A DNA stretch of 64,000 nt, from positions 20,288 through 84,287 of the forward strand of contig JAFSPS010000014.1 of NCBI GenBank assembly GCA_017451385.1, read 5' to 3'. Shown in pieces: positions 246 through 20,026 of the stretch. The position numbers were made by a program, and so were the translations under genes. The notes under the pieces are model-generated. The model was not told the origin of the DNA and did not search any database. It worked only from the letters and a program-made list of their open reading frames with translations. This DNA comes from Bacteroidales bacterium (GTDB taxonomy: Bacteria > Bacteroidota > Bacteroidia > Bacteroidales > P3). How positions within the stretch are numbered: position 1 is the stretch's first letter; each line of letters begins with the position of its first letter.

Positions 246-611
246 ATGAAAGAATATCTGGTAATATCCACACAGACTGACCTGCTGCGGCTGACGGGAG
301 AAAACATCATGTACGTCAGTGCCGACGGCAACTACTCTACCTTCATGCAGCGCAATGGGGAGTCGAAGACCATCGTGAAACAGTTGGGCGAGATAGAGAC
401 ATCCATACGCCACCAGATGCGAGAGACGGGAGCGAACTTCATACGAATAGGCAGAAGCCTGATTATCAACAAAGACTTTATCCAATACATCAACATACCA
501 CGCCAACAGCTGGTGCTGTCCGACGGCAACATCGCACAACATTCGCTCTCCGCGTCAAAGGTGGCACTGAGCCAACTGAAAGACATTCTCGACAACGAAC
601 TGAACAGATAA
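246..611 (+). CDS. LytTR-type DNA-binding protein (stand-alone)
   Basis: A 121-residue protein that is essentially one LytTR domain, the beta-rich DNA-binding fold of AgrA/LytR-type regulators. Visible hallmarks are the ADGNYSTF strand near residues 26-33, the FIRIGRSLIIN segment near 65-75 and the QLVLSDG strand near 88-94. There is no receiver domain and no membrane segment, unlike classic LytTR response regulators. Stand-alone LytTR proteins are common in Bacteroidales. The next gene starts 47 bases downstream on the same strand, so the two are probably co-transcribed and this protein may control its own operon. The family call is firm; the target genes are unknown. Confidence 0.85.
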   Translation: MKEYLVISTQTDLLRLTGENIMYVSADGNYSTFMQRNGESKTIVKQLGEIETSIRHQMRETGANFIRIGRSLIINKDFIQYINIPRQQLVLSDGNIAQHSLSASKVALSQLKDILDNELNR

Positions 612-1838: not shown

Positions 1839-1846
1839 TATCTTTG
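1839..1846 (+). promoter_or_regulatory. -7 promoter box before the structured RNA
   Basis: TATCTTTG matches the TAnnTTTG consensus. I see no convincing TTTG at -33. Transcription would start near 1853, which places the long hairpin at 1907-2035 inside the transcript and could also serve the five-gene cluster that begins at 2109. Confidence 0.45.
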
Positions 1847-1854
1847 AAAAAGTT

Positions 1855-2040
1855 TAAGGCGAGTCAACTTAAACGCAAACGACTGAACAACGAAGCGTTA
1901 TGCTTGTTCTTGTTAATGGAAACGTGAGAAATTTCTAATAAACAGCAAGACAGTATAATGGTTCACGTGATAGCGTGGGCTGTTCTATACTTTTCTTCTG
2001 TTTTAGGTTTTTTCTCACGACCCCCATTAAAAGAATAGTA
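1855..2040 (+). ncRNA. Structured RNA candidate, long interrupted hairpin (6S-like?)
   Basis: No open frame explains this stretch. It folds into one nested rod: 1907-1919 pairs with 2024-2035 (one bulge), CGTGAGAAA 1923-1931 with TTTCTCACG 2011-2019, 1935-1945 with 1998-2006, AGTATA 1952-1957 with TATACT 1986-1991, and GTTCACG 1961-1967 with CGTGGGC 1974-1980 (G-T pairs allowed). A -7 box at 1839-1846 sets the strand and predicts a transcript of about 180 bases. A long rod of this size is the shape of 6S RNA, but no sequence signature was checked. It could instead be a leader element controlling the genes from 2109. Confidence 0.45.
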
Positions 2041-2043
2041 TAT

Positions 2044-2084
2044 CAGTACCACGCTTGTGTTATAATTTGATTTCTTGGGTACTG
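2044..2084 (+). promoter_or_regulatory. Stem-loop in the leader of the five-gene cluster
   Basis: CAGTACC at 2044-2050 and GGTACTG at 2078-2084 are perfect complements with a 27-base AT-rich loop, ending 24 bases before the ATG at 2109. There is no T-run after it, so it is not a simple terminator. It may be a leader structure or a protein-binding site. Confidence 0.3.
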
Positions 2085-2108
2085 GGGAATCAGCAAAAAA
2101 CAACACAA

Positions 2109-3266
2109 ATGAAAAAAACAATTACTATCATTGCATTATGGGCAGCTTATGCTGTATTTGCTTTCTTTAGTGCATACTTTACTGCCACATCACTATCGCT
2201 CAATCTACTACAAGGCACCAATCTATGGATTATATTCATAATGGTATTCATCATTGCTCTATTAGCCGGATGGTGTCTTACAGAGTTTATAAAACAAATC
2301 TCAAATCACATAGACCCCAAAAAGAGCATAACCATCCTCACCTTTATTGGTTTCATACTCTTCTGGGGGGTCAGTTTCATGACAAACGTGCATTACTTCT
2401 TCGTACAAAAACACGGATACACCGTATTGAACAAAGAATTGTCTAACTGCAAAAATTATCTGACCGAAAACACAGACAATGCAAACAAACGGATAGAGAA
2501 CGATCGGAGCAATGCTATTAATGGCGTAAGAGCTGACATTCAGACAACATTTGACGAGTTTACTCGTGAATTGAATAACGCAATGGAATCCCGAATAGGC
2601 TTTGGGGACCATTGCATCATCCTATTGCAGCAACTGGAATCACGACTAAACAGCGACACAGCCTTATATCACGATAAGTCCAGATACCTTATCTATGATG
2701 AGTCAAGAGACAGAGGCTATTACGGACGTAAAGAGAGAAAAGATTTACAAATCATCTACAGTGACTACCGTCAGCGTATAGAGAATGCACTTCAGAGGAA
2801 GACTTCAGCCATTAACGCCTACTATGATTTAATGATTGTAAAGAATGACGTATGGAAAGAAATACTCCGTTCGGCTGACAGTCTGGCGACCTATGACCTT
2901 CCAGAAGTTCGTGAAGATGGTTCTGTCGAAGCATACTTCGCATACAATTCAAAACAAAATGCTTTAGTCGTTGACAAAATGCCAAGTGAATACGACACCA
3001 CATGCATCATATACAAAGTTCAAAACGCCAATACAGGGGAAGACAAAGCATCTATCTCAAAAAAAATAGCAGGCTACAAGATATATCCCTCCAAACATAT
3101 GTTTGACACATTCACCGTTTGGAACGACATCATGCATGGCTACCTGCCTGAATACATGAGGATATGGCAATGGATACTCATATCACTGCTTGTTGATGTC
3201 GTAGCATTCCTTCTGTTTTATTTAGCAAACAAACAATCATCCAGTTCATCATCAATAATCTATTAA
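2109..3266 (+). CDS. Four-TM protein with large extracytoplasmic loop, unknown function
   Basis: I do not recognise a family. The ATG at 2109 gives 385 residues with N-terminus MKKTITII; an upstream non-ATG start would add an unlikely 18-residue tail. Three membrane segments lie near residues 5-27, 38-60 and 72-92. A largely charged, helical stretch of about 260 residues with coiled-coil character follows, then a fourth segment near 355-378 and a serine-rich tail. With the N-terminus inside, the big loop would be periplasmic and both ends cytoplasmic. It is the first gene of a five-gene same-strand cluster, 11 bases ahead of the GTPase-like gene. The cluster is visibly AT-richer than its flanks. 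Confidence 0.75.
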   Translation: MKKTITIIALWAAYAVFAFFSAYFTATSLSLNLLQGTNLWIIFIMVFIIALLAGWCLTEFIKQISNHIDPKKSITILTFIGFILFWGVSFMTNVHYFFVQKHGYTVLNKELSNCKNYLTENTDNANKRIENDRSNAINGVRADIQTTFDEFTRELNNAMESRIGFGDHCIILLQQLESRLNSDTALYHDKSRYLIYDESRDRGYYGRKERKDLQIIYSDYRQRIENALQRKTSAINAYYDLMIVKNDVWKEILRSADSLATYDLPEVREDGSVEAYFAYNSKQNALVVDKMPSEYDTTCIIYKVQNANTGEDKASISKKIAGYKIYPSKHMFDTFTVWNDIMHGYLPEYMRIWQWILISLLVDVVAFLLFYLANKQSSSSSSIIY

Positions 3267-3277
3267 AAAACAAAAAA

Positions 3278-4090
3278 ATGGCATATCAGATTTCTGACAA
3301 AACAGCTCCCATTATTATTTTTGTAGGACCCTCACAAGCGGGAAAAAGCATGGTTCTTGTTCGCATTGCCAAATATCTTTATACAAAAGGGTACTCCGTT
3401 CAGGCATGCAGAAATTACATTGATACCAACGACTACCAACAGGCATGTGATGAATTCGATGCTGCATTGACCTCAAATCAAGCCCTGCCTGGCACTGTTA
3501 CCGACCTACTCGTACAAATACGCAAAACCAATGGCGACATTGTAGCGCAAATGTTGGAAGCACCCGGTGAACACTTTTTTAATCCAGCAAATCCACAACA
3601 AGCCGTTCCAGGTTATCTACAACATATCTGTGGCGGTGCCGTTCAAAACAAGAAGTGTTTCATACACATTTTGGACTTTGACAGCAATCCCAAATCTCCA
3701 GAACAATCATTGCGTAACAATTCTACAATACGAGATTTGTATGCTAAACGATTAATAAATGTTATTAAACCATTCGCACGCAAGATTGACCGCCACATCC
3801 TTCTATATAACAAGATTGACCTTACTCCGTATGGGACAACTCACGAATGTAAGAACTTCGGAGGTGCATTAAGAGATGCCGAACAAAATTATAGCTACGT
3901 TTTTGCCAACATGAAAAAGAAAATCCTCGGTGGACTCTTTACCGTTGACGACTTCGTATTCCTCCCATTTTCAACGGGAACATACTCAGAAAATTATGAT
4001 GATATGGGAGATATTTTATCTAAAGACTACAACATATCATCGGACATTTATCCAGAAAAACTCTGGAACGAAATAACAAGACGTTTTTAA
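3278..4090 (+). CDS. P-loop GTPase-like protein (TRAFAC-like)
   Basis: A soluble 270-residue NTPase. The P-loop GPSQAGKS sits at residues 17-24. EAPGEHF at 94-100 occupies the place of the switch II/DxxG region, and NKID at 178-181 is the guanine-specificity NKxD motif. The order and spacing of G1, G3-like and G4 fit a TRAFAC-type GTPase, although the G3 Asp is replaced by Glu in EAPG. It resembles the GTPases called double-GTPase or TRAFAC-clade in conflict-system surveys, but only one GTPase domain is present here. It is the only soluble member of the cluster (gaps of 11 and 10 bases on either side), so it is probably its cytoplasmic switch. Confidence 0.75.
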   Translation: MAYQISDKTAPIIIFVGPSQAGKSMVLVRIAKYLYTKGYSVQACRNYIDTNDYQQACDEFDAALTSNQALPGTVTDLLVQIRKTNGDIVAQMLEAPGEHFFNPANPQQAVPGYLQHICGGAVQNKKCFIHILDFDSNPKSPEQSLRNNSTIRDLYAKRLINVIKPFARKIDRHILLYNKIDLTPYGTTHECKNFGGALRDAEQNYSYVFANMKKKILGGLFTVDDFVFLPFSTGTYSENYDDMGDILSKDYNISSDIYPEKLWNEITRRF

Positions 4091-4100
4091 ATAATACATC

Positions 4101-5645
4101 ATGAATATAATTGATTATCTATACCATGGCAAACTTGGCGACACACACGTACTTACAAAGGACTCCGCTAACCTTGCCAAATTAAAGGAGAAAGTAAAGG
4201 AAGAGTTTTTTTCATTATCTACCCAAATTGCACAGAAATCGCCACAGCATCCAGTATTGCAATTTGACATCCGTGGAGGAGCGGAGAAGCGCTATGCCGT
4301 CGCAACATATTTCATCTCAACAAAAGACGTAGGTCTTCGCCCTGGCGGCTACTTCGCCCTATCTTTATTTATTGAGAATGAGATGCCACGTTCTCGTTCT
4401 ACAATGTATGGGATATTTCAGAAATACCACGACGAACTCTTAAAACATAATATTATATCCGAAACTCAGATACGAATATCCTCTTTTGATGAAAAAAAAG
4501 ATTTCTTATTCTCTCTTGCCGATGAATTAGTTAAAGACATCAATAGTCAATGTAAAGACGTTCAAAGTATCTCGTCAATCAGCCCTATTACATCTAACTC
4601 TATCAATAATAGTCAACTGATAAGTTTGGATGATTGCGACTCACAATATCTATTCAACATCCTAAAAAGAGGCGAAAAAGTCTTTGTGTCTCCAAACTTC
4701 CAATCATTACAATTCATTGCCGAAGACTATAAGAAAAAATATGAGAGCGAACATAGCAAACAATTATTGACTCAACAAAAAAATCAAAAAAACGAAGATA
4801 CACCCCATAAGAAACCAAACGCAAAAGACCCTCGTGACAAAGACCAACAAGAGGTAATATCAAATTTAAGAGCAGAGAATAACGAGTTGAAAAGTCAAAT
4901 AGAATCCATAAAGATAGTTCTGGATAAAAAAATCTCTAAAGCACAAGGTGGAATTGGCGCTGTCAAAAAGAATATAGCGGAAGTTCGCGAAGAAGAAAAA
5001 CAAAATGGAAGTGGAAGCATATGGAGCAAATTTATTCTTCTTATACCTTTCTTTAATCTATTGCTACTAATTGTTCTAATTTATTTAATAAGCAGCAATC
5101 TTGAAATTTTAAAAAAAAACACAGAAAACCCTAAAGACACCACAGATCATCCAACTGTTGTAGGAAAGGGAACAACCGATACCGACGGAGACTCATCAAA
5201 TGGGAAAGAGGATTTTATTAACTATGGACCGGATATAACAAATACCGGAAGCGAACCACATCAAAATCTTGCTACTTTAGGCACTACTACATATGAAACA
5301 AAAGACATAATCCTACAAGTTTTTTTGGTAAAAGACTCACTAATCAATATTTCAAAAAATAGCCAAATAGAACTACACCCAAAGGATATACTCGTTTTAC
5401 GTTGTAACAATACTCAAGCTGACTACGATTGGTTTGGCGACATTAATTGTTACAAAAATAAAGACATGATAAAGAAGATAGCGACAGAACACAACTTTTA
5501 CGATAAAACGAAAAAAACGGATATTATTGCATTTGTAAACGAATCTACTAATAACAACATTAGGATATGGTACTGCCTTGATAAAGAGAAGGACATTCCC
5601 TTTGAACAACAAAAAAATAGAAGGAATTACAAATATAAAAAGTGA
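4101..5645 (+). CDS. Single-TM protein: cytoplasmic domain, coiled coil, periplasmic domain
   Basis: 514 residues with no family I can name. Residues 1-150 form a globular domain with strands such as KRYAVATYF and YFALSLFIENE followed by a helix. Residues about 215-300 are charged and coiled-coil-like. A strongly hydrophobic segment near 312-334 spans the membrane. A Thr/Asp/Gly-rich linker then leads to a C-terminal extracytoplasmic domain of about 130 residues. No signal peptide is present, so the N-terminus should be cytoplasmic. The same architecture recurs in the last gene of the cluster (6164-7450). The stop is 4 bases before the next ATG, indicating tight co-transcription. Confidence 0.75.
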   Translation: MNIIDYLYHGKLGDTHVLTKDSANLAKLKEKVKEEFFSLSTQIAQKSPQHPVLQFDIRGGAEKRYAVATYFISTKDVGLRPGGYFALSLFIENEMPRSRSTMYGIFQKYHDELLKHNIISETQIRISSFDEKKDFLFSLADELVKDINSQCKDVQSISSISPITSNSINNSQLISLDDCDSQYLFNILKRGEKVFVSPNFQSLQFIAEDYKKKYESEHSKQLLTQQKNQKNEDTPHKKPNAKDPRDKDQQEVISNLRAENNELKSQIESIKIVLDKKISKAQGGIGAVKKNIAEVREEEKQNGSGSIWSKFILLIPFFNLLLLIVLIYLISSNLEILKKNTENPKDTTDHPTVVGKGTTDTDGDSSNGKEDFINYGPDITNTGSEPHQNLATLGTTTYETKDIILQVFLVKDSLINISKNSQIELHPKDILVLRCNNTQADYDWFGDINCYKNKDMIKKIATEHNFYDKTKKTDIIAFVNESTNNNIRIWYCLDKEKDIPFEQQKNRRNYKYKK

Positions 5646-5649
5646 AACC

Positions 5650-6162
5650 ATGAAAAAATACTTTATTTTACTATTAGTTGCGTCTATCACATTATGCGGA
5701 TGCAACTCCAAGAAGAAAAAATATGACCCATACAAAAAAAGAGAGAATACAACAGCCATTACAAGAGGTTTTGATATACCTTTTAGCATAAATGGTAATA
5801 CTCGAGTAGTTATGGTAACACTCAACGACGTCCTTGGCATAAATGCACTATTTGACACTGGATGTTCCAATATGCTCATCTCGGAAATGGAGTTTACCAA
5901 GTTACTACTCGAAAACACAATCATAGAAACAGACATAGGAGAGAGACCTGCAACTATAGCAAATGGAGAAACATCCATTTATAAAACCGTAAAACTCAAA
6001 GTTACTTTAACCGATAACAATGGAAAAAAACATGATGCCAATGTTGAAGCTACCGTTGTCCCCAATTTCTATGCTGAATGTCTTGTTGGAAATGGTGTTT
6101 TCTCACAACTATCTTCAAAAATCACACTAAATGACCAAAAGAATGTAATTCACTTTGATTAA
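5650..6162 (+). CDS. Lipoprotein with retropepsin-like aspartic protease motif
   Basis: The ATG at 5650 gives 170 residues beginning MKKYFILLLVASITLCGC, a lipoprotein signal with the lipidated cysteine at residue 18. After a short Lys-rich linker comes a clan AA aspartic protease-like domain: ALFDTGCSNMLIS with the DTG triad at 69-71, and VGNGVF at 147-152 near the usual hydrophobic-hydrophobic-Gly position. One DTG per chain is typical of retroviral-type proteases that act as dimers. It sits between two single-TM proteins that expose C-terminal domains to the same compartment, so those domains are plausible partners or substrates (inference). A start further upstream would overlap the previous gene. 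Confidence 0.75.
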   Translation: MKKYFILLLVASITLCGCNSKKKKYDPYKKRENTTAITRGFDIPFSINGNTRVVMVTLNDVLGINALFDTGCSNMLISEMEFTKLLLENTIIETDIGERPATIANGETSIYKTVKLKVTLTDNNGKKHDANVEATVVPNFYAECLVGNGVFSQLSSKITLNDQKNVIHFD

Positions 6163-6163
6163 G

Positions 6164-7450
6164 ATGACGCCTCTATTCTTCTTTTTTGGAAACTTCGGGA
6201 AAGAACATACTCAGTATCCCAGCGACTACACACAAAACATATTCAAAGAGTTCATATCAGAATCAAACAATAAGGTGCAGATTATCGTTCATCGCAGCGA
6301 TAATCTGCTTTATTATGGGTATGTACGGAAAATTGATAAAACAAACACCTTTGGAATTGGGGTTGCCATCGACAAAGTGTTTACAGATACAAGTCGCCTC
6401 TTTGACTTCTTTGATGACATATACTCCCAGTTCGCCTTGTCAGGCATAATCATTGCCATATCTACGAACGGGAAAACAATAATTAAGACAGATAACATAC
6501 AAGACGAAAAAAATGCAATAGAACAAAGTAAGATAAAATTAGAAAAAGAGATACTTGATATAGATACAGAAGAGCTACCACCATTAAAGCTATCTGTTTC
6601 AAAAGACATTCATATAAAGACAAGTTTAAGTTCTCCTCAGGAAGAAATAATACAACTTCTTAAAACTTATTCTAATATATACATTGGAAAGAAGAACTCT
6701 GATATACGCCGCATTGATGATGTAAAAAATACAATAAAAAAACAGAATGAAAAAATACAATCACTTAGCACAGAACTTGATAAAGAAAAGAAACGAAATA
6801 AAAATTTCAAGACTGTCTTCATTCTGTCTTGCATCATCGTTTTCTGTATTTTTTTCTTAATCAATCTTTTTAACAAACAAAACTACCAAGAACTAAAAAT
6901 AGGAGAACTATACGACACCATCAAGATGCAAGACGAAGAAATTGATTCTCAAATAAGAATCAATAAAACGATTGAGAAAAGTCTTCAAAACATAAAATAT
7001 TACACATATACCGTAGGTCCATCCGTCAATGAACATGACAGTTATGACAACTCTTACATCCTTTGGCTGGAATCTGAATTAGACATAAAACTGCTGTCTT
7101 TCGATGTTAAAGCCGATAAATCAGGCGATATATGTATAGCCTTATTTGATAGCACGGACAATAAAATAGCCACATTCACACAGTATATTTATGGGAAAAC
7201 AACCTGTAAAATAGATTGTAACTGTACTATTCGGCGTGGATTATACTATCTAAAAATAATAAACAATGACAACGACAATATCATAAACCTTCTATATCAT
7301 AGCACATCACAACGTGACTATGAGAATTATAAGATTGGTCCACTAAAAATCAAAGGTACTTGCAGTTACCAAAACAGAAACAATGCAAATCAACGTTTTT
7401 CAAATGGCTATTATCAATATTTCTACAATATTCAATACAAAATACTCTAA
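6164..7450 (+). CDS. Single-TM protein: cytoplasmic domain, coiled coil, periplasmic beta domain
   Basis: I prefer the ATG at 6164, one base after the lipoprotein stop (428 residues), over an in-frame TTG at 6155. The N-terminal 120 residues contain FGIGVAIDKVF followed by RLFDFFDDIYSQF, which matches by pattern the FALSLFIEN...MYGIFQKYH stretch of the protein at 4101-5645. A charged coiled-coil region lies near 185-215, a membrane segment near 216-237, a second heptad-like helix to about 280, and then a strand-rich C-terminal domain of about 150 residues that looks like a beta sandwich. Function unknown; it is probably a paralogous partner of the 514-residue protein. Confidence 0.75.
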   Translation: MTPLFFFFGNFGKEHTQYPSDYTQNIFKEFISESNNKVQIIVHRSDNLLYYGYVRKIDKTNTFGIGVAIDKVFTDTSRLFDFFDDIYSQFALSGIIIAISTNGKTIIKTDNIQDEKNAIEQSKIKLEKEILDIDTEELPPLKLSVSKDIHIKTSLSSPQEEIIQLLKTYSNIYIGKKNSDIRRIDDVKNTIKKQNEKIQSLSTELDKEKKRNKNFKTVFILSCIIVFCIFFLINLFNKQNYQELKIGELYDTIKMQDEEIDSQIRINKTIEKSLQNIKYYTYTVGPSVNEHDSYDNSYILWLESELDIKLLSFDVKADKSGDICIALFDSTDNKIATFTQYIYGKTTCKIDCNCTIRRGLYYLKIINNDNDNIINLLYHSTSQRDYENYKIGPLKIKGTCSYQNRNNANQRFSNGYYQYFYNIQYKIL

Positions 7451-7666: not shown

Positions 7667-8290
7667 ATGAAAGTACTCCTCATCAACGGCAGCCCACGCC
7701 GCAACGGCAACACCTACACAGCCCTACACGAGATAGCCTCACAACTGGAAACGGACAACATAGAGAGCGAGATAGTGCATATCGGCGTCAAGCCCATACG
7801 CGGCTGCATAGCATGCAACCAGTGCGCAACCCGACAGCTGGGGCATTGCGTGTTTGACGACGACATCTGCAACAGCATTACCGAGAAGCTGCGTGCCAGC
7901 GATGCCTTGGTGGTGGGCTCTCCCGTCTTTTACGGACAGCCCAATGGCACACTGCTGTCACTGCTGCAGCGCATGCTATATTCTGCCAGCGATGCGGCAC
8001 AGAACAAGCCTGCCGCCGCGGTGTGCGTATGCCGTCGTGGTGGCGCCACGGCAGCCTTCCAGACACTGACCATGCCGTTTCAGATGCTCAACATGCCAGT
8101 GATAACATCGCAGTACTGGAACATAGCCTACGGCCGCGCCGAAGGCGAGGCAGCCCTTGACAGCGAAGGCATGCAGACCATGCGCACCCTCGCCGATAAC
8201 ATGGCGTGGCTGCTAAACAAGATTCACGCCAACGGAACGCCCGACTACCCCACTCGTGAACCGTGGCAACCCACCCACTTCATCCGTTAG
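7667..8290 (+). CDS. Flavodoxin-fold NAD(P)H-dependent FMN reductase-like protein
   Basis: 207 residues with the flavin-binding start MKVLLINGSPRRNGNT (GSPRxxGNT phosphate loop) and ALVVGSPVFYGQPNGTL, typical of the NADPH-dependent FMN reductase/iron-sulfur flavoprotein family. The CIACNQCATRQLGHC segment near residues 47-61 resembles the cysteine motif of iron-sulfur flavoproteins, here with four Cys, so a cluster may be bound. It is expected in the cytoplasm, transferring electrons from NAD(P)H through FMN to quinones or other acceptors. It is a single gene, ended by a strong hairpin terminator. Confidence 0.85.
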   Translation: MKVLLINGSPRRNGNTYTALHEIASQLETDNIESEIVHIGVKPIRGCIACNQCATRQLGHCVFDDDICNSITEKLRASDALVVGSPVFYGQPNGTLLSLLQRMLYSASDAAQNKPAAAVCVCRRGGATAAFQTLTMPFQMLNMPVITSQYWNIAYGRAEGEAALDSEGMQTMRTLADNMAWLLNKIHANGTPDYPTREPWQPTHFIR

Positions 8291-8322
8291 ACAGCCTGCG
8301 AGCATATTGCACAGCATACAAC

Positions 8323-8364
8323 AAAAAGTGTTGAGTTATCAGCAGATAGCTCAACACTTTTTTT
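8323..8364. terminator. Rho-independent terminator, bidirectional
   Basis: GTGTTGAGTTATC (8328-8340) pairs with GATAGCTCAACAC (8345-8357) around a four-base loop, flanked by AAAAA on the left and TTTTTTT on the right. It serves the flavodoxin-like gene on the plus strand and the giant adhesin converging on the minus strand. Confidence 0.85.
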
Positions 8365-8441
8365 GTCTGAATGTCAAATCGAGAGTTGCTTTGCGAAGCA
8401 ACAAAGCAACAATCTCACACTTGGGGTGCTTTTTCTCTTGC

Positions 8442-11400
8442 CTACCGCACTATCAGCTTGCGTGCCACGGTCTCGTTGTCGCCGGTGTGGAGGATTATGG
8501 AGTATGTGCCTTTTGTATCTACGGTTATATAGTTGTCGCCACTGGCGGCAGGCATCTGCACGACGAGGCGACCCAGCATGTCGTATATCTCTATTGTGCC
8601 GTTGTCGTCAACGCCTGTGGCGCTGATGGTCACCAGATGTCCCACGGCGACGGGGTTAGGATAGACAGAGAGCGAGAGAGGTGCCGCCAGCGACTTGCCA
8701 GAATTGACGCAGATGGTGTCGGAGTGCATATAGCTGCCAGCCACTAACACCTCGGCAAAATAGCATCCACCGAGTGGCAGATAGCGCGTGCCGAGAGTGT
8801 CGGCATAATAATCGTTGGTGGCGCCGGGGATTTGCACATAGAGGCCGTAGGGGTGGTCGCAACGATACCAACGATAGCCACCATAGTCCACGCGCTTGGT
8901 GTCGGGGCCCATGGGATAGTGGTCCACCATCAGTAGGTTCTTCAGCTCGTAGCACTTAATTTTAGGACGCATATATTCGGGCGAGACGAAGAGGTGCAAC
9001 ACATCAAGGCTGTCGCAGCCCACGCTGTTGCCGCCCGGAATATTGTGCTTGAAGACGCCCGTAGTGTCGTGCACGGTGCCGTGCCATGAGAAAGGCAGTG
9101 CCGTGCGCATAGTGTCATCCCGCACAGTTGAATGGTTGAGCGTGAGATAGAGCGTTATGATGCTGTCGCAGCCGTTGGCGGCAACGGTCTTTACGCTGGG
9201 CAACGTGGTGGAATAGGCGTAGGTGATGCCATCTATCCATGTGTAGCTGTCGCATGCCGTCTGCCGGTCTATCCTATTGCTACCGTATCTTATAGTAAGA
9301 TGCAACATTACGGTGCTGTCGCAACCATTGGCAGCAACAAAGCGGTGCGTCAGGTCGCTACGACTGATGGTAACAGCCTGATGCTCGTACCACGAATAGC
9401 TGTCGCAGGCAGATGCCGAGGTGTCGCCATAGGTGTCGTGCTTGATAGTGATACGCATATAGACCGTGCTGTCGCAGCCCGCCGCACTCGTAAGACGCTG
9501 GCTCACAATGGTGTCGGAGACGAAAGTCATACCATTCCACCGGTAGCTGTTGCAAGCGGCAGCAGAAGTTGATGTCTGGGCAGTGTGATGCACTCTGACA
9601 GTAGTCTGCATGACGGTGTCGCAGCTGGCGAGGCTGAACAGCGTGTCATAGACAACAGTGTCGGCACGGAGCAGTCTCCCACGCCACGGCACATTGTCGC
9701 AGGTGACCACCTGCTGGAAGCCTTGCACAGTGTCTTTAATATCAATATATATTGTGCCTATATTGTCGCAGCCCGACGGGTTGGGCTCTCTCTGCGTCAA
9801 GACGGTGTCGGCGGTGATGACAAGGCCGTTCCACACATAGCTCTTGCAAGCGGTGAAGGCGGTAGTGTATGTTGTAGAGTGGTTTATCGTGAAATGTATG
9901 GTCACGATGCTGTCGCATTCTGCCGCATTGGTCAGCGTCTGCTGGATGCTGTCGCTGGAGTAGTAGGTGGTGCCGCCCCAAACGATGCTGTCGCATTCCG
10001 TCAGCGTGCTTTCGGACGACGAGGAGTGCTTTATGGACAGAATCAGCGTGATGACGCTGTCGCATCCGGCGGCATTGGTGGTCGTATGCTGCGTCGTAGT
10101 GCTGGAGAAATAGGTGATGCCGTCTATCCATAGCAGGCTGTCGCACGCCGTCTTGTTAATGTCGGCAAAGGAGCTATGATTCACCGTCAGATGCACCTCA
10201 TAGATGCTGTCGCACACGCCCATGCCCGAGACAGCGTAGCTGACCGTAGTATCAGCAACGAAGGTCTCGCCGTTCAACACATAACTGTCGCATGCCGATA
10301 CAGACTGTGGCACAACGATGGCGTGCTGTATGGCAACTATTATCGAGGCCATGCTGTCGCATCCTGCCGCATTGGTGCCGTTCTGCGTTATGGTGGTATC
10401 GACCGTGATGGTCTGCCCCTGCCATGTGTAGTTCTCGCATGCAGAGACACTGTCCACGCTGCTCGTAGCACTGTTTATGGTCAGGTGCAGCGACACGACG
10501 CTGTCGCATCCTGCGGCGTTGACATAGGTGTTCTGCACCATCGTGTCGGCATTATATAGGCTGCCATGCCATGCAAAACTGTCGCACACCGTGGCAGAGG
10601 TGTCACCAACAAGCGGTGCATTGACCGTGAGGGTGAGGAAGGTGATGCTGTCGCACCCCGCCCTGTTTTGCATCAATGCCGTACTGTCGCGATATACGGT
10701 GTCGGTATGGAATACGAGTGGCGTGCCGTTGAAGGTGTAGGTGGCACCAGCGCATACAGCATCGACAATCTGCACCGTGTCGGCAGTATTAAGTATGAAC
10801 GTAGCCGTCACACTGCTGTCGCACTGTCCTATCGCCGTAGTGAAATGCTTGGTGTCGGTAGTATTAGTGGTATAGGTTGTGCCGTTCCACTCTATGGATG
10901 AGCAGAATGTCTGAGGTTCTAAGATGCTGTCGCGGCTGTGGTTGACGGTAAGGTTAAGCAGCAGGAGGCTGTCGCCGCCGCAGCTGCTGGTGCCTATAGC
11001 CACGGGTTCCGCCGTCGTGGAGGCATAGCGCGTGCCGTAGGCCCAAACGAGGCTGTCGCACACCGCCGTGTCGAGGGCAGCAGGAGCGTAGGTGTCGCGC
11101 GGACGTATGTACCAATGGGTTATGATGGTGGTAGGCGTGCATCCAGTGCGATAGACCTGTTCGGTGGTGCTGATGGTGCTGCCGGGCATTGCCGCCGTCA
11201 CTTCGGCTGGGATGTCCACACGACGGGGGCCGATAATCAGTATGCTATCAATGCCGAAGCCGGCACCGCCACGGTTGACATGAGCAAAGCGGCATTGTGC
11301 TTCGGCACCTGCCGTAAGGCTGCTGAAGTCGGCAGGAGTCGATTCCATCAAATACCAATAATCATCAGTAATAAACTCGTTGCCGTCCGAGTTGAAGTGG

Positions 11401-13190
11401 AACAAAGGAGAGCTGTTGATGCGTGTGGTGTTGTCGGCATCGAAATTGAAGCACGAGAGTATCACCTCGTCGTAGAAGGTGGCGCCGTCCACATATACGG
11501 CATCACCATAGACCGCATTGGGACCACAGAACATATACAGCTTCATCGAGGTGCGCGAGGGGTCGGCAATGACGAAGCGCGGCGTGCTGGCAGTGCTGAT
11601 AAACTGCATCATGTATATCTGCTCCTGATCGGAGAGGACGGTGTTGCCGATAAGGTTCTCGGCTTCCGGAGGCCACGCTGCGAGCGGATATTCGAACAGC
11701 GTCAGTCCGCCAAGTGCCGACATCGTGCCGTAGTAGTTGGGGATATTGTATATGTCATATCCCGTCAGGGCGTTGAAGCCGCTGCCGTTGAGGGCTGCAT
11801 TGTCGTAGGACCAGCATGTGGGCGTGCCGTTGTCGAAGTCCTCATAGAGAAGGGTGTCCACCTCGCGCGTGACGTGGTAGCCCGTCTCACCCTGACAGAT
11901 GGTGTCGTAGCGTTCTATGGTGCGCGCTGCTGAGGGAGGCAGCACGGTGAGCGTCTTGACTACCACCGAGTCGCATCCGTGGCTGTCGGTGAGAGTGTCG
12001 TTGATGGTACCTCCTTCGCTGAAGGTAACACCACCCCATGTGTAGGGCAACTGCGCGCTGCCTATCACGTTGGTCGCCGTGGTCTGGCTGCTTTGGTGCA
12101 CCGTCAGCGTGAGCAGCCTGATGCTGTCGCCACCGCAACGATTGGTGCCTACCACCACGGGCTGTGCGCTTACCGAAGCGGTGCAGTTGCCATACTGCCA
12201 CACGAGGCTGTCGCAGACAGCGGTATCGAGCGCAGGGCCGTAGTTGGACGAGCCGTTGCCGATATACCATGTTGTGACCACTATCGTTGTGTCGTAGCCG
12301 TCAACGATGTACGTCTGCTCCGTCGTCAGCGACGTGCCAAGGCTGGCAAGCGTCACCTCGCTGGGGATATCCACACGGCGTGGACCCATGATGAGGATGC
12401 TGTCGATGCCGAAGCCGGCACCACCGCGGTTGACATGAGCAAAACGGCATTGTGCCTCGCTGCCCGCCGTGAGGGAGGCAAAGTCCGTAGGCTCAGATTC
12501 AAGGAGATACAGCTCATCGTCATTGACAAACTCGTTGCCATCTGAGTTGAAGTGGAAAAGCGTCGTATTGTTTATTCGTGAAGTGTTGTCGTTATCGAAA
12601 TTATAACAAGAGAGCAGCACCTCATCATGGAAGACAGAGCCATCCGTCCACCCTGGGTAACCATACGTCACATTGGGAGCGCAGAAGAAAAGAAGCGACA
12701 TGGTGGTACGGGAAGGGTCAGCGACGACAAAACGCGGCGTGGTTATCATGCTTATGAACTGCGATAGATAACTGTTCTGCGCTGGGGTAAGACTCTCAGG
12801 GGCAACATTCATCAAAGCCTCGGCATCTGTGGGCCATACCCCCAGAGGATATTCGAAGAGCGTCTGCGTGCCGATGGCAGAAACCGTACCATACTGCGCG
12901 TCGTTATATACATCATAACCCGTCAAGGCGTTGAAGCCACTGCCGTTCTGCTGCGCCGTGGTACGCGTCCACGACAAGGGCAGCCCGTTGTCAAAGGTCT
13001 CATAAAACAAGGTATCTATGGCACGAGTGATGTGATAGCCCGTCTCGCCGCGACACACCGTGTCAAGACGATAAACATAGCGACGACTAAGCTGTGCCGA
13101 TACTTCGACGGGGAAAAACGACGCCACAACAAAAGCAAATATCGCAAGGACAAAGAATGATATACTGCTGGAAAACTTATATTTTTTCAT
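8442..13190 (-). CDS. Giant repeat adhesin 1, T9SS type A sorting domain
   Basis: I start at the ATG at 13190 (MKKYKFSSS, 1582 residues), which opens a clear signal peptide ending near VSAQ. Two successive modules of about 250 residues follow (YETFDNG... and YEDFDNG..., each with FAHVNRGGAGFGIDSI and GPRRVDIP), which resemble cleaved-adhesin/MAM-like jelly rolls. Then comes a long array of repeats of about 50 residues with the pattern CDSYxW...GCDSxxxLxLTI. A domain containing HYPMGPDTKRVDYGGYRW precedes the C-terminus, which is a type A T9SS sorting domain (SVYPNPV, YDMLGRLV, KLIVR end). Export across the outer membrane by a T9SS and surface attachment are expected. It is one of four paralogs in the window. 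Confidence 0.9.
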   Translation of the reverse strand: MKKYKFSSSISFFVLAIFAFVVASFFPVEVSAQLSRRYVYRLDTVCRGETGYHITRAIDTLFYETFDNGLPLSWTRTTAQQNGSGFNALTGYDVYNDAQYGTVSAIGTQTLFEYPLGVWPTDAEALMNVAPESLTPAQNSYLSQFISMITTPRFVVADPSRTTMSLLFFCAPNVTYGYPGWTDGSVFHDEVLLSCYNFDNDNTSRINNTTLFHFNSDGNEFVNDDELYLLESEPTDFASLTAGSEAQCRFAHVNRGGAGFGIDSILIMGPRRVDIPSEVTLASLGTSLTTEQTYIVDGYDTTIVVTTWYIGNGSSNYGPALDTAVCDSLVWQYGNCTASVSAQPVVVGTNRCGGDSIRLLTLTVHQSSQTTATNVIGSAQLPYTWGGVTFSEGGTINDTLTDSHGCDSVVVKTLTVLPPSAARTIERYDTICQGETGYHVTREVDTLLYEDFDNGTPTCWSYDNAALNGSGFNALTGYDIYNIPNYYGTMSALGGLTLFEYPLAAWPPEAENLIGNTVLSDQEQIYMMQFISTASTPRFVIADPSRTSMKLYMFCGPNAVYGDAVYVDGATFYDEVILSCFNFDADNTTRINSSPLFHFNSDGNEFITDDYWYLMESTPADFSSLTAGAEAQCRFAHVNRGGAGFGIDSILIIGPRRVDIPAEVTAAMPGSTISTTEQVYRTGCTPTTIITHWYIRPRDTYAPAALDTAVCDSLVWAYGTRYASTTAEPVAIGTSSCGGDSLLLLNLTVNHSRDSILEPQTFCSSIEWNGTTYTTNTTDTKHFTTAIGQCDSSVTATFILNTADTVQIVDAVCAGATYTFNGTPLVFHTDTVYRDSTALMQNRAGCDSITFLTLTVNAPLVGDTSATVCDSFAWHGSLYNADTMVQNTYVNAAGCDSVVSLHLTINSATSSVDSVSACENYTWQGQTITVDTTITQNGTNAAGCDSMASIIVAIQHAIVVPQSVSACDSYVLNGETFVADTTVSYAVSGMGVCDSIYEVHLTVNHSSFADINKTACDSLLWIDGITYFSSTTTQHTTTNAAGCDSVITLILSIKHSSSSESTLTECDSIVWGGTTYYSSDSIQQTLTNAAECDSIVTIHFTINHSTTYTTAFTACKSYVWNGLVITADTVLTQREPNPSGCDNIGTIYIDIKDTVQGFQQVVTCDNVPWRGRLLRADTVVYDTLFSLASCDTVMQTTVRVHHTAQTSTSAAACNSYRWNGMTFVSDTIVSQRLTSAAGCDSTVYMRITIKHDTYGDTSASACDSYSWYEHQAVTISRSDLTHRFVAANGCDSTVMLHLTIRYGSNRIDRQTACDSYTWIDGITYAYSTTLPSVKTVAANGCDSIITLYLTLNHSTVRDDTMRTALPFSWHGTVHDTTGVFKHNIPGGNSVGCDSLDVLHLFVSPEYMRPKIKCYELKNLLMVDHYPMGPDTKRVDYGGYRWYRCDHPYGLYVQIPGATNDYYADTLGTRYLPLGGCYFAEVLVAGSYMHSDTICVNSGKSLAAPLSLSVYPNPVAVGHLVTISATGVDDNGTIEIYDMLGRLVVQMPAASGDNYITVDTKGTYSIILHTGDNETVARKLIVR

Positions 13191-13240
13191 CTTTTCGGAT
13201 GCTTTTTTATTCAACAATTCGTTTGTTTTTTTTCATATTT

Positions 13241-13363
13241 CTCACAATTCACTTCTCACTATTCACCATTCACAATTCACTTCTCACCATTCACAATTCA
13301 CAATTCACAATTCACTATTCACAATTCACTATTCACAATTCACTATTCACAATTCACTTCTCA
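13241..13363. repeat. Tandem short repeat, ATTCACAATTCAC type
   Basis: About 120 bases built from variants of ATTCACAATTCACT and TTCTCACT, placed between the outer-membrane barrel gene and the start of adhesin 1. The same words recur singly at about 41085-41118 and 45031-45055, also next to gene starts. It is non-coding and slippage-prone. Confidence 0.8.
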
Positions 13364-14308
13364 CTACAACCATCTGTCACGCAAACCGGTTATCTTGTAG
13401 GGGTTGACCCACTGCAGGCGGTCGCCGAAGTTGAGGTCGTACTTCAGCCGCACACCCATGCTGAGATAGCGCAACGACGAGATGGCGCTACTCTCAAGGC
13501 AATGGTTATACTTCAACTCTTTGTCCACCAGCTCCACCATGCTGCCGTCGCCACTGCCCTTGATGCTGTTGAGACCAAAATCGACGAAGAACGAGACCAT
13601 CAGATGGTTCTCGTTGCTTACGGCGTAGCGGTAGCCCACTTCAAGTGCCGCTGCCACCGTCAGCCAGTTGGATTCGACATCATATTTGCCATCGCGCGCC
13701 GGAATCTTCCTATATTCTATCGGCATTGGGAGCGTCACGCCCATGCCGTCAACCTCCTCGCCAAAACTCAGCATAGCCTCGCCATATTCATATTTGGCTG
13801 ATGCCGAGACTGGAAACAGCAGTCGCACTCCTGCCTCCATGAAGAAATGGTCTTTCTGATACAACGCCATGACAGGCAGCGTGAGATAGGTCACGCTGTA
13901 GTCTTCGCGCGCATTAGCCGAATAGGTGATGACATGGCTTAGGCGTTTCTCGCTACCATCGTTGCCGAAAACAGGCATCTCTCCCATTCCCTTGGTCTCC
14001 AGCTCGTCGAACTTCACCGTGCTGCCGCCATAGGTCACGCCCAGAGCAGCATGAATACCCCAAAAAGAGGTGAAAAGGTGAGTGTAGCCCAGCTCAAGAT
14101 GCCCTCCAATGCCGGGCACCGTGGGGTTGAAGATGTTTCCGTTGGCCATCATCTCATGAACTCCTACACCTATTGTGGCGGTAAAATTGGACACTCGCTG
14201 CAAGCGCAACATGCCACGCTGTTTCAACGGCACACGCTCATAGCCCTGCCCTTGTACGCCTACCACGGCACCAAAAAGCAATAAGGTAATTAGTAATACT
14301 TTTCTCAT
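13364..14308 (-). CDS. Outer-membrane beta-barrel protein
   Basis: The ATG at 14308 gives 314 residues starting MRKVLLITLLLFGAVVGVQG, a standard signal peptide; the longer open frame upstream would put the signal 68 residues inside. The mature part alternates glycines and aromatics in amphipathic strands (ATIGVGVHEM, HLELGYTHLF, AALGVTYGG) and ends in LNFGDRLQWVNPYKITGLRDRW. This is the pattern of outer-membrane barrel proteins of the PorT/OmpA-barrel type common in Bacteroidota. It lies directly upstream of adhesin 1 on the same strand, separated by the short-repeat tract. A role with the adhesin is possible but not shown. Confidence 0.7.
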   Translation of the reverse strand: MRKVLLITLLLFGAVVGVQGQGYERVPLKQRGMLRLQRVSNFTATIGVGVHEMMANGNIFNPTVPGIGGHLELGYTHLFTSFWGIHAALGVTYGGSTVKFDELETKGMGEMPVFGNDGSEKRLSHVITYSANAREDYSVTYLTLPVMALYQKDHFFMEAGVRLLFPVSASAKYEYGEAMLSFGEEVDGMGVTLPMPIEYRKIPARDGKYDVESNWLTVAAALEVGYRYAVSNENHLMVSFFVDFGLNSIKGSGDGSMVELVDKELKYNHCLESSAISSLRYLSMGVRLKYDLNFGDRLQWVNPYKITGLRDRWL

Positions 14309-14331
14309 TAGCAGTATTTTATTCTGGTTTC

Positions 14332-14382
14332 TATAAACAGGGGTTATATGCAACCCCACAGGGGTGAATATTCTAACCAACC
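14332..14382 (-). promoter_or_regulatory. Conserved GC-rich double-hairpin element, copy 1
   Basis: Read on the minus strand, this leader has CACCCCTGTGGGGTT followed at once by GCATATAACCCC. The central GGGG can pair with the CCCC on its left (loop TGT) or with the CCCC on its right (loop including GCATAT), giving two mutually exclusive hairpins. A second copy with changed bases lies at 55391-55425. It sits just ahead of the barrel gene start at 14308. Confidence 0.45.
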
Positions 14383-14537
14383 GTTTTCTTTGCACTTCAT
14401 TGTTGTTCTCCGTTGCCGAGGGAGTCACCACACCGTTCTCTTCACCTTTTCGCCACTCGTACATCACATCAATAAAAGAAACCGAATGTCCCACACCATA
14501 GCGCAAGACCACATGTGGGACATTCGACTTTTATCGG

Positions 14538-17843
<3,306 letters not shown>

Positions 17844-17905
17844 TTTATGTCTTATTACATTATTATACAACAACTTATTCGTTATGATACAATCACACGA
17901 AACTG

Positions 17906-17913
17906 CAAAAATA
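17906..17913 (-). promoter_or_regulatory. -7 promoter box of secA
   Basis: On the minus strand 17913-17906 reads TATTTTTG, a match to TAnnTTTG, about 65 bases ahead of the secA ATG. I see no clear -33 TTTG at the right distance. Confidence 0.4.
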
Positions 17914-18032
17914 ATAAAAATCAAAAAAATAGACAACATCAACTTCAATCTACATTTTCCGTAATTTGCGTTTTACCTCCTCCGGCCCTTTCGCCACTTT
18001 GTATTCGTCATTCTTCAAACGGCTGCCAGAAC

Positions 18033-18165
18033 ATTTCGTTGTCGTCACTAAGCAACCTCCGTAAGCACCAAAGCAACCCTTCGTTAATTTCGTTCCTTTC
18101 GTGGTCGCTATCCTGCAATCAAAAGACTGTGTGGTAAAACTTTCGTCCCTTTCGCGTTCGCCACG
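18033..18165. repeat. Dispersed ACGAA-rich intergenic repeat, diverged copies
   Basis: The minus strand of this gene-free stretch reads CGACCACGAAAGGAACGAAA followed by TTAACGAAGGGTTGCTTTGG, clearly related to the four tandem units at 23036-23320. It fills the gap between secA and the symporter gene. No coding potential seen. Confidence 0.55.
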
Positions 18166-18176
18166 CTGTGGTTCGA

Positions 18177-18208
18177 TTTGAGTTTTTGCAATCTATGTCG
18201 TACCTTTG
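18177..18208 (+). promoter_or_regulatory. Promoter of the symporter gene at 18221
   Basis: TTTG at 18177-18180 and TACCTTTG at 18201-18208 with a 20-base spacer fit the Bacteroides -33/-7 consensus. The predicted start of transcription falls only a few bases before the ATG at 18221, so the mRNA would have an extremely short leader. Confidence 0.7.
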
Positions 18209-18220
18209 CAGGCGTTTTTT

Positions 18221-19732: not shown

Positions 19733-19778
19733 TTTTCAACAAAATACATCACGTACAACAATATAAGGCAAAAAATAA

Positions 19779-19809
19779 TTTGTCATATTAAAAAAAATGC
19801 GTACCTTTG
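19779..19809 (+). promoter_or_regulatory. Promoter of tRNA-Asp
   Basis: TTTG at 19779-19782 and TACCTTTG at 19802-19809 with a 19-base spacer are a near-perfect match to the Bacteroides promoter consensus. It lies about 60 bases before the tRNA. Confidence 0.75.
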
Positions 19810-19871
19810 CAATCGCATTTGAGGAACGAAACTGATGTTTCGAGAGTTCTAAGAGATAACAGATGCAAAAC

Positions 19872-19949
19872 GGTTCGGTAGTTCAGTTTGGTTAGAATAC
19901 ATGCCTGTCACGCATGGGGTCGCGAGTTCGAGTCTCGTCCGGACCGCCA
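19872..19949 (+). tRNA. tRNA-Asp (GTC), CCA encoded
   Basis: A full cloverleaf: acceptor arm GGTTCGG (19872-19878) pairs with CCGGACC (19939-19945), G discriminator, CCA at 19947-19949. The anticodon loop has GTC at 19907-19909 (CTGTCAC), and the T-loop is GTTCGAGTC. GTC decodes the Asp codons GAC and GAT. It has its own promoter upstream and a terminator hairpin directly after. Confidence 0.97.
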
Positions 19950-19960
19950 AACAAAAAGAA

Positions 19961-19993
19961 AGCAATCAGTCAAACAACTGGTTGCTTTTTTTT
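19961..19993 (+). terminator. Terminator after tRNA-Asp
   Basis: AGCAATCAG (19961-19969) pairs with CTGGTTGCT (19978-19986) around an eight-base loop and is followed by a run of nine or more T. It is a classic rho-independent terminator, 11 bases after the CCA end. Confidence 0.85.
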
Positions 19994-20026
19994 TGCATCT
20001 GATTACTCGTTAGACAACGACTGTAA

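What the first reader, a model, noticed from the sequence alone, without database searches (positions are those of the whole stretch)
1839..7450. Possible undescribed trans-envelope GTPase system
Five same-strand genes with gaps of 1-11 bases encode a four-TM protein, a P-loop GTPase-like protein (GPSQAGKS, EAPGEH, NKID), two single-TM proteins with cytoplasmic and periplasmic domains, and a lipoprotein with a DTG protease motif. The layout suggests a cytoplasmic switch coupled through the membrane to a proteolytic step outside. GTPase-centred conflict or signalling systems are known, but I know of none that carries a retropepsin-like lipoprotein.
Basis: partly seen in the sequence, partly recalled or inferred. 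Interest (0 to 1): 0.85.

Follow-up and report, generated by a model that had tools for sequence, protein, structure and literature searches.

The report
Mobile trans-envelope GTPase–protease gene cassette
Five neighbouring genes form a cassette, seemingly moved between gut-type bacteria as a unit, that joins a switch protein inside the cell to a protease outside the inner membrane; it looks like an undescribed envelope-sensing, possibly defence, machine.

Summary
Five same-strand genes (2109-7450; gaps 11, 10, 4, 1) encode a 4-TM protein (A), a P-loop GTPase-like protein with a glutamate in Walker B (B), two single-TM proteins (C, E) and a retropepsin-like lipoprotein (D). It is a conserved unit: A precedes B in 78 of 78 loci, C follows in 77 (the other contig ends). 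C and E are paralogues in their cytoplasmic halves; their outer halves are hypervariable. Of 65 long loci 53 carry retropepsin and 2, lacking it, carry a subtilisin-like lipoprotein, before E in one and after E in the other. The cassette is GC-poor (0.357 against 0.493), sporadic (12 of 190 family genomes) and mostly lies among different genes in relatives: probably moved laterally. By profile comparison B is nearest DO-GTPase2, below Pfam's threshold and not by every test; GAP1 was not detected. Best reading: a GTPase-gated envelope sensor with a proteolytic checkpoint, a cousin of predicted GTPase-centric conflict systems. Defence is unproven. Passing find: a covarying leader RNA before many cassettes, but also before surface-protein genes.

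The parts
1899..2042 (+). non-coding leader of gene A, predicted long imperfect RNA hairpin
   Evidence: MFE -54.6 kcal/mol for 1880-2042, z -6.4, 0 of 200 shuffles fold as well; inverted repeat 1907-1931/2011-2035; only a weak match to leader model R1 (1961-2064 +, E 0.0026 in a 561-base search, the opposite strand scoring slightly better)
2109..3266 (+). A: four-TM membrane protein (3 N-terminal TMs, ~270-residue middle region predicted periplasmic, C-terminal TM)
   Evidence: hydropathy (in 70 homologues 50 show four TMs, 17 three, 3 two); K/R counts of loops in 60 homologues; next before B in 78 of 78 loci; no Pfam family above cut-off
3278..4090 (+). B: P-loop GTPase-like protein, by profile comparison nearest to DO-GTPase2
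   Evidence: motifs in 75 homologues; hhalign to DO-GTPase2 probability 96.5 over 176 columns
3326..3349 (+). G1/Walker A of B (GPSQAGKS)
   Evidence: G17, G22, K23 in 75 of 75; S/T24 in 75 of 75
3557..3571 (+). G3 of B (EAPGE), Glu in place of the usual Asp
   Evidence: E94 73 of 75, G97 75 of 75, E98 74 of 75
3809..3820 (+). G4 of B (NKID)
   Evidence: N178 61 (H in 10), K179 71, D181 74 of 75
4101..5645 (+). C: single-pass protein, cytoplasmic N domain and coiled-coil-like stretch, TM, variable periplasmic domain
   Evidence: TM at residue 312; N domain homologous to that of E
5034..5090 (+). TM segment of C
5650..6162 (+). D: retropepsin-like lipoprotein
   Evidence: PF13975 E 6e-7; ApRick profile match
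5854..5862 (+). catalytic motif DTG of D
   Evidence: D[TSN]G in 56 of 57 retropepsin rows (DTG 45, DSG 10, DNG 1; DTA in L099); the 58th row of that alignment is the subtilisin-like L087 protein
6164..7450 (+). E: single-pass protein, cytoplasmic N domain paralogous to that of C, TM, variable periplasmic domain
6815..6871 (+). TM segment of E

Best explanation
A mobile, envelope-spanning surveillance module. The variable periplasmic halves of C and E bind something outside the inner membrane (an invader-derived or envelope-damage cue). Their paralogous cytoplasmic domains act as an adaptor pair on the GTPase B, which works at the membrane through A. The lipoprotein protease (retropepsin D, or in a few cassettes a subtilisin-like enzyme) is the extracytoplasmic checkpoint or output: it most likely clips the outer domain of C, E or A, so that sensing and the GTP switch are locked or released by proteolysis. 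Shown: gene unit, paralogy, predicted topology, presence of an extracytoplasmic protease of either of two classes in 55 of 65 long loci, constant core against hypervariable outer domains, signs of lateral movement. Inferred: GTP hydrolysis, contacts, substrate, direction of signalling, and a role in biological conflict.
For: Order A-B-C in 77 of 78 loci; 63 of 65 long loci also have E. C and E N domains homologous, hhalign E 1.2e-21, outer parts not. Constant against variable: at 50-70% B identity (31 pairs) A 63, B 57, D 57% against 16% (C outer) and 17% (E outer). The window's E outer domain matches that of L100 and L098 at 31 and 29% over 97-98% with no N-domain hit at E 1e-3, which looks like a domain swap. 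Of 65 long loci: 53 retropepsin, 2 subtilisin-like (L073 before E, L087 after E), 1 weak Lnb_N-like, 3 unknown 'G', 6 none. Lateral movement: GC 0.357 against 0.493; 39 of 44 pairs of related cassettes (60-98.5% B identity, at least 4 flank ORFs each) share no flank ORF; integrase-like genes in 4 loci. Constant switch plus variable outer modules plus TM components is the described pattern of GTPase-centric conflict systems (PMC7159879, sections 27 and 29 read).
Against: No defence phenotype; PADLOC gives the five proteins only weak matches (best E 0.0012); the flank scan showed no consistent defence company. 9 of 65 long loci have neither retropepsin nor a recognisable protease (6 none, 3 'G'), so a dedicated protease is not obligatory, and the subtilisin-like gene of L087 is not at D's position. 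D is as conserved as B, which does not by itself say that C or E is its substrate. The RNA leader shared with surface-protein genes could equally mark an ordinary envelope regulon. B is a GTPase by motif only: P-loop ATPase-type Pfam models match more members than DO-GTPase2 does. No structure could be predicted.
Confidence: 0.43

Rival explanations
1. Envelope-homeostasis regulator, not a conflict system: the secreted protease keeps its membrane partners (A, C, E) in check and the GTPase transmits growth or stress state, as the P. aeruginosa Rlo operon pairs a secreted retropepsin with a TM protein and a cytoplasmic nucleotide-using enzyme.
For: Rlo phenotypes of protease loss are suppressed by loss of rloB or rloC (PMC12239564, abstract and section 11 read). 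The leader RNA of many cassettes is shared with surface-protein genes.
Against: Sporadic distribution (12 of 190 family genomes; 4 of 393 order genomes, two of them of the own family), signs of lateral movement and hypervariable outer domains are unusual for housekeeping.
Confidence: 0.25
2. It is simply a DO-GTPase/GAP1 conflict system, C and E being diverged GAP1 proteins.
For: Best profile-profile neighbour of B is DO-GTPase2; Glu in Walker B; tandem GTPase genes in L058 and L101; GAP1-N2 systems have TM parts and outer beta-sandwich domains.
Against: Pfam DO-GTPase2 reaches only E 0.0034 in 2 of 13 members, while nSTAND3 (9 of 13, best 1.6e-4) and AAA_22 (10 of 13) do better; small local HMMER models do not single DO-GTPase2 out (best E against the B set: DO1 0.0003, Der/Era-type 0.0017, DO2 0.0031); PDB profile searches find SRP-type GTPases first. 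GAP1-N1 and GAP1-N2 profiles do not match C or E (below 1%), though they do not match each other either.
Confidence: 0.12
3. Assembly factor of an envelope machine (secretion, adhesion): A, B, C, E build it, D processes an exported subunit.
For: TM and coiled-coil architecture; BACON or Ig-like models match a few C or E members, positions not shown.
Against: No conserved exported substrate gene seen beside the cassette; neighbours mostly differ.
Confidence: 0.12
4. Unrelated genes that happen to lie together; D is a passenger.
For: D absent or replaced in 12 of 65 long loci.
Against: 77 of 78 conserved order; D identity tracks B (r 0.77 in 46 loci without L087), though relatedness alone inflates this.
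Confidence: 0.02

Closest known systems
DO-GTPase / GAP1 GTPase-centric predicted conflict systems (PMC7159879; Pfam PF19993, PF19975, PF20012, PF20013)
   Same: P-loop GTPase-like protein with conserved Glu in Walker B; sometimes two GTPase genes; TM components; constant core with variable outer modules; mobile neighbourhoods; peptidases among effectors (passage)
   Different: no zinc ribbon noticed (by eye); no detectable GAP1; no GASH or FNIII among the Pfam matches shown; separate 4-TM protein A; two paralogous single-pass proteins; extracytoplasmic lipoprotein protease of two alternative classes; Bacteroidota
Rlo operon of Pseudomonas aeruginosa (PMC12239564)
   Same: secreted retropepsin-like enzyme, TM protein and cytoplasmic nucleotide-handling protein in one operon
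   Different: no GTPase named; RloB is an inactive transglutaminase TM protein and RloC an ATP-grasp protein; not described as a mobile cassette in what I read (abstract, section 11)
PerP-PodJ of Caulobacter (passages seen in PMC2714070 and PMC10202637)
   Same: periplasmic protease removes the periplasmic domain of PodJ (that PodJ is single-pass with a long cytoplasmic coiled coil, and that PerP is aspartic, is recalled)
   Different: cell-polarity factor; a GTPase partner gene is not mentioned in the passages seen
Bacterial retropepsins such as Rickettsia ApRick (PDB 5c9b)
   Same: retropepsin-like domain of D (profile E 3e-6)
   Different: D is a lipoprotein in a conserved five-gene cassette

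Membership tests
DO-GTPase (PF19993/PF19975) | match above Pfam cut-off | tested here: not met
   PF19993 in 2 of 13 members, best E 0.0034; not among matches of the window protein at E 0.1; no PF19993 match in the own genome at 1e-8
DO-GTPase (PF19993/PF19975) | GTPase profile similarity over G1-G4 better than to other GTPases | tested here: inconclusive
   for: hhalign probability 96.5 over 176 columns (DO2) against 74.1 (DO1), 58.5 (12 G domains from PF01926 matches), 93.5 over only 61 columns (one FtsY). Against: 30.1 over 33 columns with 20 GAP1-N2-associated GTPases; HMMER best E DO1 0.0003, PF01926-type 0.0017, DO2 0.0031, GAP1-N2-associated 0.05; SRP-type GTPases first in PDB
DO-GTPase (PF19993/PF19975) | conserved glutamate in Walker B | tested here: met
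   E94 in 73 and E98 in 74 of 75
GAP1-type GTPase system | GAP1 protein with GAP1-N domain downstream of the GTPase | tested here: inconclusive
   C/E N domain against GAP1-N1 0.4/0.3% and GAP1-N2 0.7/0.7%; but GAP1-N1 against N2 0.2%, so the test has no power
GAP1-type GTPase system | GASH or FNIII component | tested here: inconclusive
   not among the Pfam matches shown for members of C and E (25 families shown per scan) nor for the window proteins
retropepsin-like aspartic peptidase (clan AA) | D[TS]G-type catalytic motif and downstream hydrophobic-Gly motif | tested here: met
   56 of 57 retropepsin rows D[TSN]G; Gly of the hydrophobic-Gly motif in 56 of 57, the other (L037) cut off by its contig; Pfam above cut-off
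retropepsin-like aspartic peptidase (clan AA) | homodimeric activity, peptide cleavage | not testable with these tools
   needs biochemistry
lipoprotein | signal peptide II and lipobox Cys | tested here: met
   LCGC in the window; lipobox-like Cys found by pattern in 51 of 58 rows; no signal-peptide program was available
anti-phage defence system | protection against phage | not testable with these tools
   no experiment; PADLOC gives only weak matches

The most novel reading that the evidence does not exclude
A categorically new class of trans-envelope immune or surveillance machine in Gram-negative bacteria: a GTP switch read out by paired paralogous transmembrane adaptors with swappable periplasmic sensor domains and an interchangeable periplasmic protease module (aspartic or serine) acting as its fuse.
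Probability: 0.3. Interest if true: 0.88.

Novelty: new variant of a known kind. Interest (0 to 1): 0.72.

Why it matters
Predicted GTPase-centric conflict systems are, in the source read, in large part placed near the cell membrane, with triggers only proposed. A Gram-negative version with separate outer sensor domains and an extracytoplasmic protease gives clear, testable handles (protease substrate, GTPase partners, domain-swap specificity). The presence of another protease class in cassettes that lack the retropepsin suggests that proteolysis itself is the function kept. If true, a GTPase-driven envelope surveillance layer exists in gut Bacteroidota.

Tried and rejected
GAP1 link of C/E: profiles give nothing, but the positive control (GAP1-N1 against N2) also fails, so it is not claimed either way. 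A first GAP1-N2 set (14 sequences) held wrong-strand frames and was rebuilt (17 sequences). G550, the phylum hit, lies in an ORF read by eye as FtsY and was discarded. PDB searches with the C/E N domains and with A gave nothing below E 0.05. The flanking genes of the window are not close neighbours in the listed relatives, so no empty site could be shown. Short-contig bins titled Bacillus, Oscillospiraceae, Lachnospiraceae, Clostridiales, Opitutales and Roseburia may be misbinned Bacteroidales contigs; they are kept in counts but not used for host range. The 78 loci are not independent (L038/L039/L040/L042, L044/L045, L103/L104 at least 99% alike in B). Cassettes in plasmid and phage records: none with the window's B as query, none in plasmids with the L105 protein. 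The leader RNA was first thought cassette-specific; one search shows that it is not.

Errors found on checking: the D alignment and model contain one wrong row, the subtilisin-like L087 protein; without it the identity table is unchanged to two digits and r for D becomes 0.77 in place of 0.74. One search used a weak second hit as gene A in L068; with the best hit the count is 30 of 73, not 29.
Full report
WHAT IS THERE. Five + strand genes: A 2109-3266, B 3278-4090, C 4101-5645, D 5650-6162, E 6164-7450, gaps 11, 10, 4, 1 bases. The cassette has GC 0.357 in a window of 0.493; stretches on either side (1-1561, 7667-20000) have 0.512 and 0.543, and the five lowest 1-kb windows of the 64 kb lie in it. 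Only D belongs to a named family above cut-off (PF13975, E 6e-7); the other four have no Pfam, NCBIfam, PHROGs or PADLOC match below E 1e-3.

THE UNIT IS REAL. The window's B finds 12 of 190 genomes of the same family, the own one included; a profile finds 4 of 393 genomes of the order, counting the own genome and G138 of the own family, and in 395 of the phylum only the own and G550, whose match lies in an ORF that reads as FtsY by eye. A motif scan of 84,980 species gave 75 loci; 68 have Bacteroidota titles (two Candidatus names placed from recall), such as Bacteroides, Prevotella and relatives, Parabacteroides, Porphyromonas, Dyadobacter, Saprospiraceae and Chitinophagales; six are bins with Firmicutes or Opitutales titles, and one is an isolate, Undibacterium pigrum, with A-B-C only. 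With L124-L126 this makes 78 loci. Among family-labelled genes A is next before B in 78 of 78 and C next after B in 77 of 78, the exception being a contig end; median gaps are 21 and 4 bases. Of 65 loci with at least 2,500 bases after C, 63 carry E.

PROTEINS. A has three N-terminal TMs, a middle region of about 270 residues and a C-terminal TM; loop charges in 60 homologues (K/R 0.3 in loop 1-2, 2.9 in loop 2-3) put the middle region in the periplasm. C and E each have one TM; K/R before against after it are 3.5 against 2.0 (47 of 70 higher before, 7 lower) and 5.1 against 1.75 (54 of 56 higher before, 1 lower), so N-in. Their cytoplasmic N domains are homologous to each other (hhalign 99.4%, E 1.2e-21, 130 columns); the outer parts are not. 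B: G1 and G3 (E-A-P-G-E) are nearly invariant and G4 (NKxD) mostly kept (N 61, K 71, D 74) in 75 homologues. D: 56 of 57 retropepsin rows keep D[TSN]G. Residues +2 to +6 after the pattern-located lipid Cys hold at most 2 acids in 51 of 51, i.e. no acidic surface-export signal (that signal is recalled), which suggests that D faces the periplasm.

CONSTANT CORE, VARIABLE OUTSIDE. In 47 complete loci, pairs with 50-70% B identity (31 pairs) average A 63, B 57, D 57, C-N 32, E-N 39, C-outer 16, E-outer 17%; with at least 70% (11 pairs) A 76, B 75, D 71, C-N 56, E-N 64, C-outer 28, E-outer 45% (unchanged without L087). Detectable similarity at E 1e-3: E N parts 1313 of 1711 pairs against outer parts 169 of 1326; C N parts 1312 of 2415 against outer parts 40 of 1953. 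The window's E outer domain matches that of L100 and L098 (E 1e-20, 2e-19; 97-98% coverage) with no N-part hit: probably a domain swap. BACON or Ig-like models match a few C or E members; their positions were not shown.

THE PROTEASE. Of the 65 long loci 53 have retropepsin D. L087 and L073 lack it and instead encode proteins with a lipobox (by eye or pattern), related to each other (29% identity), with subtilase Asp, His, oxyanion Asn and Ser motifs kept (motifs named from recall). L087 passes PF00082 (22.7 against 21.8 bits); L073 does not but has a subtilase prodomain (PF22148, E 8e-8). In L073 this gene stands before E, as D does; in L087 it follows E. L062 has a lipoprotein with a sub-threshold Lnb_N match (16.9 against 22.2 bits). 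Three loci have an unknown TM-anchored protein 'G', before E in L058 and after E in L098 and L100; six have nothing. An unrelated protease class in cassettes without retropepsin argues that proteolysis matters; the nine loci with no recognisable protease argue that it is not obligatory. In L085 a retropepsin gene precedes A.

LATERAL MOVEMENT. Among 44 locus pairs with B identity 60-98.5% and at least four flank ORFs each, 5 share any flank ORF and 1 shares three or more; the pairs are not independent and flank ORFs are mechanical. Genes related to two integrase-like queries lie in 4 loci, the nearest listed gene before A in L124 and L052. Some assemblies carry two distinct cassettes (L043/L072; L066/L094, by contig prefix; G158 and G167).

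PLACE AMONG KNOWN SYSTEMS. By profile-profile comparison B's best neighbour is DO-GTPase2: hhalign 96.5% over 176 columns, G1 to G4 in register, against DO-GTPase1 74.1, 12 G domains from PF01926 matches 58.5 and one FtsY 93.5 over 61 columns. Other tests do not single it out: 30.1 with 20 GTPases next to GAP1-N2, although their G3 'AGEHF' resembles B's 'APGEH'; HMMER best E-values DO1 0.0003, PF01926-type 0.0017, DO2 0.0031; Pfam DO-GTPase2 2 of 13 members, best 0.0034, behind nSTAND3 (9 of 13, 1.6e-4) and AAA_22 (10 of 13); SRP-type GTPases first in PDB. So B may work like, and may be a remote relative of, DO-GTPases, but membership is not met. GAP1 could not be tested with power. PMC7159879 (sections 27 and 29 read; other passages seen) describes a constant GTPase core with variable TM and outer modules in mobile neighbourhoods, the pattern seen here. 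Searches of the open library met no description of this cassette: and no paper, two papers, 28 papers (15 listed), four, 533 (8 listed); of these only the papers named here were opened, and most subscription papers are not held.

HOW IT MOST LIKELY WORKS. Outer domains of C and E sense; their paired inner domains set B; B acts with A at the membrane; D cuts an outer domain or an A-linked partner as checkpoint or output. PerP removing the periplasmic domain of PodJ (PMC2714070 passages; PMC10202637 passages) and the Rlo operon, where loss of the TM or cytoplasmic partner suppresses loss of secreted retropepsins (PMC12239564 abstract and section 11), show that both halves of such a scheme exist in bacteria. 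Every step of coupling here is inference. A PADLOC scan of 131 of 201 listed nearest flank ORFs found 73 families at E 1e-10, 23 of the 25 shown in single members, without a control: no claim of defence islands.

LEADER RNA. Upstream regions of cassettes at different sites share sequence. A model of 15 leaders (P1 followed by a U-rich tail, P2 inside) has 98.1% standard pairs and 8 pairs with double changes (0 of 500 shuffles reach either), against at most 51% and 3 when slid; the weaker measure, further pair types, is reached by 21 of 500 shuffles. An alternative, pseudoknot-capable helix is nearly as consistent. The structure was chosen by looking at these sequences. The model matches within 1 kb upstream of A on the same strand in 30 of 73 eligible loci at E 0.01, 15 of them the training set, and farther off in 3 more. 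But it also occurs in 116 of 189 genomes of the family at E 1e-4. Of 20 such loci looked at, the core was located in 11, and in 5 of these a BspA-like repeat protein (named by eye) follows. No Rfam 15 match was found in the window's leader (E up to 1) or, tRNAs apart, in the window and six cassette loci at gathering score. The window's leader folds very stably (z -6.4) but matches the model only weakly.

Noticed in passing
L049:6606-6719 +, L069:6608-6717 +, L126:10802-10908 - and others: Structured leader RNA (two helices with compensatory changes, U-rich tail), no Rfam 15 match where tested, 1-8 copies per matching genome among those listed, in 116 of 189 family genomes, before cassettes and surface-protein genes.
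   Followed up: partly
window 1880-2042: Very stable predicted RNA hairpin upstream of A (z -6.4), only weakly like the leader model.
   Followed up: partly
L058:4738-6670, L101:7842-9585, L059:14498-15274: Cassettes with a second GTPase gene of the same family, tandem in L058 and L101, recalling the paired DO-GTPases.
   Followed up: no
L057:4063-4686, L059:10580-11182, L061:4152-4826, L090:8518-9111, L091:9356-9970: Extra predicted secreted protein of about 200 aa between C and D in several cassettes (family F).
   Followed up: no
L058:9265-10152, L098:11994-12908, L100:11958-12854: TM-anchored protein 'G' of about 300 aa in three cassettes that lack D; the L098 and L058 proteins have no Pfam match above cut-off.
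   Followed up: partly
L067:13156-15240: TPR protein with a C-terminal retropepsin domain just downstream of a cassette that already has D.
   Followed up: no
L062:7869-9275: Predicted membrane protein with a von Willebrand A-like DNSGS motif (by eye; no Pfam match above cut-off) inside the cassette.
   Followed up: no
L105:6751-10415: A-B-C without D or E in Undibacterium pigrum, the only locus titled as a proteobacterium.
   Followed up: no
window 246-608 and 659-1561: LytTR-domain regulator and a NAGPA-domain protein just upstream; the latter and the downstream FMN reductase gene are not close neighbours in the listed relatives.
   Followed up: partly
window 8442-13217 -: 1591-aa repeat protein with a C-terminal sorting-like domain downstream (by eye).
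   Followed up: no
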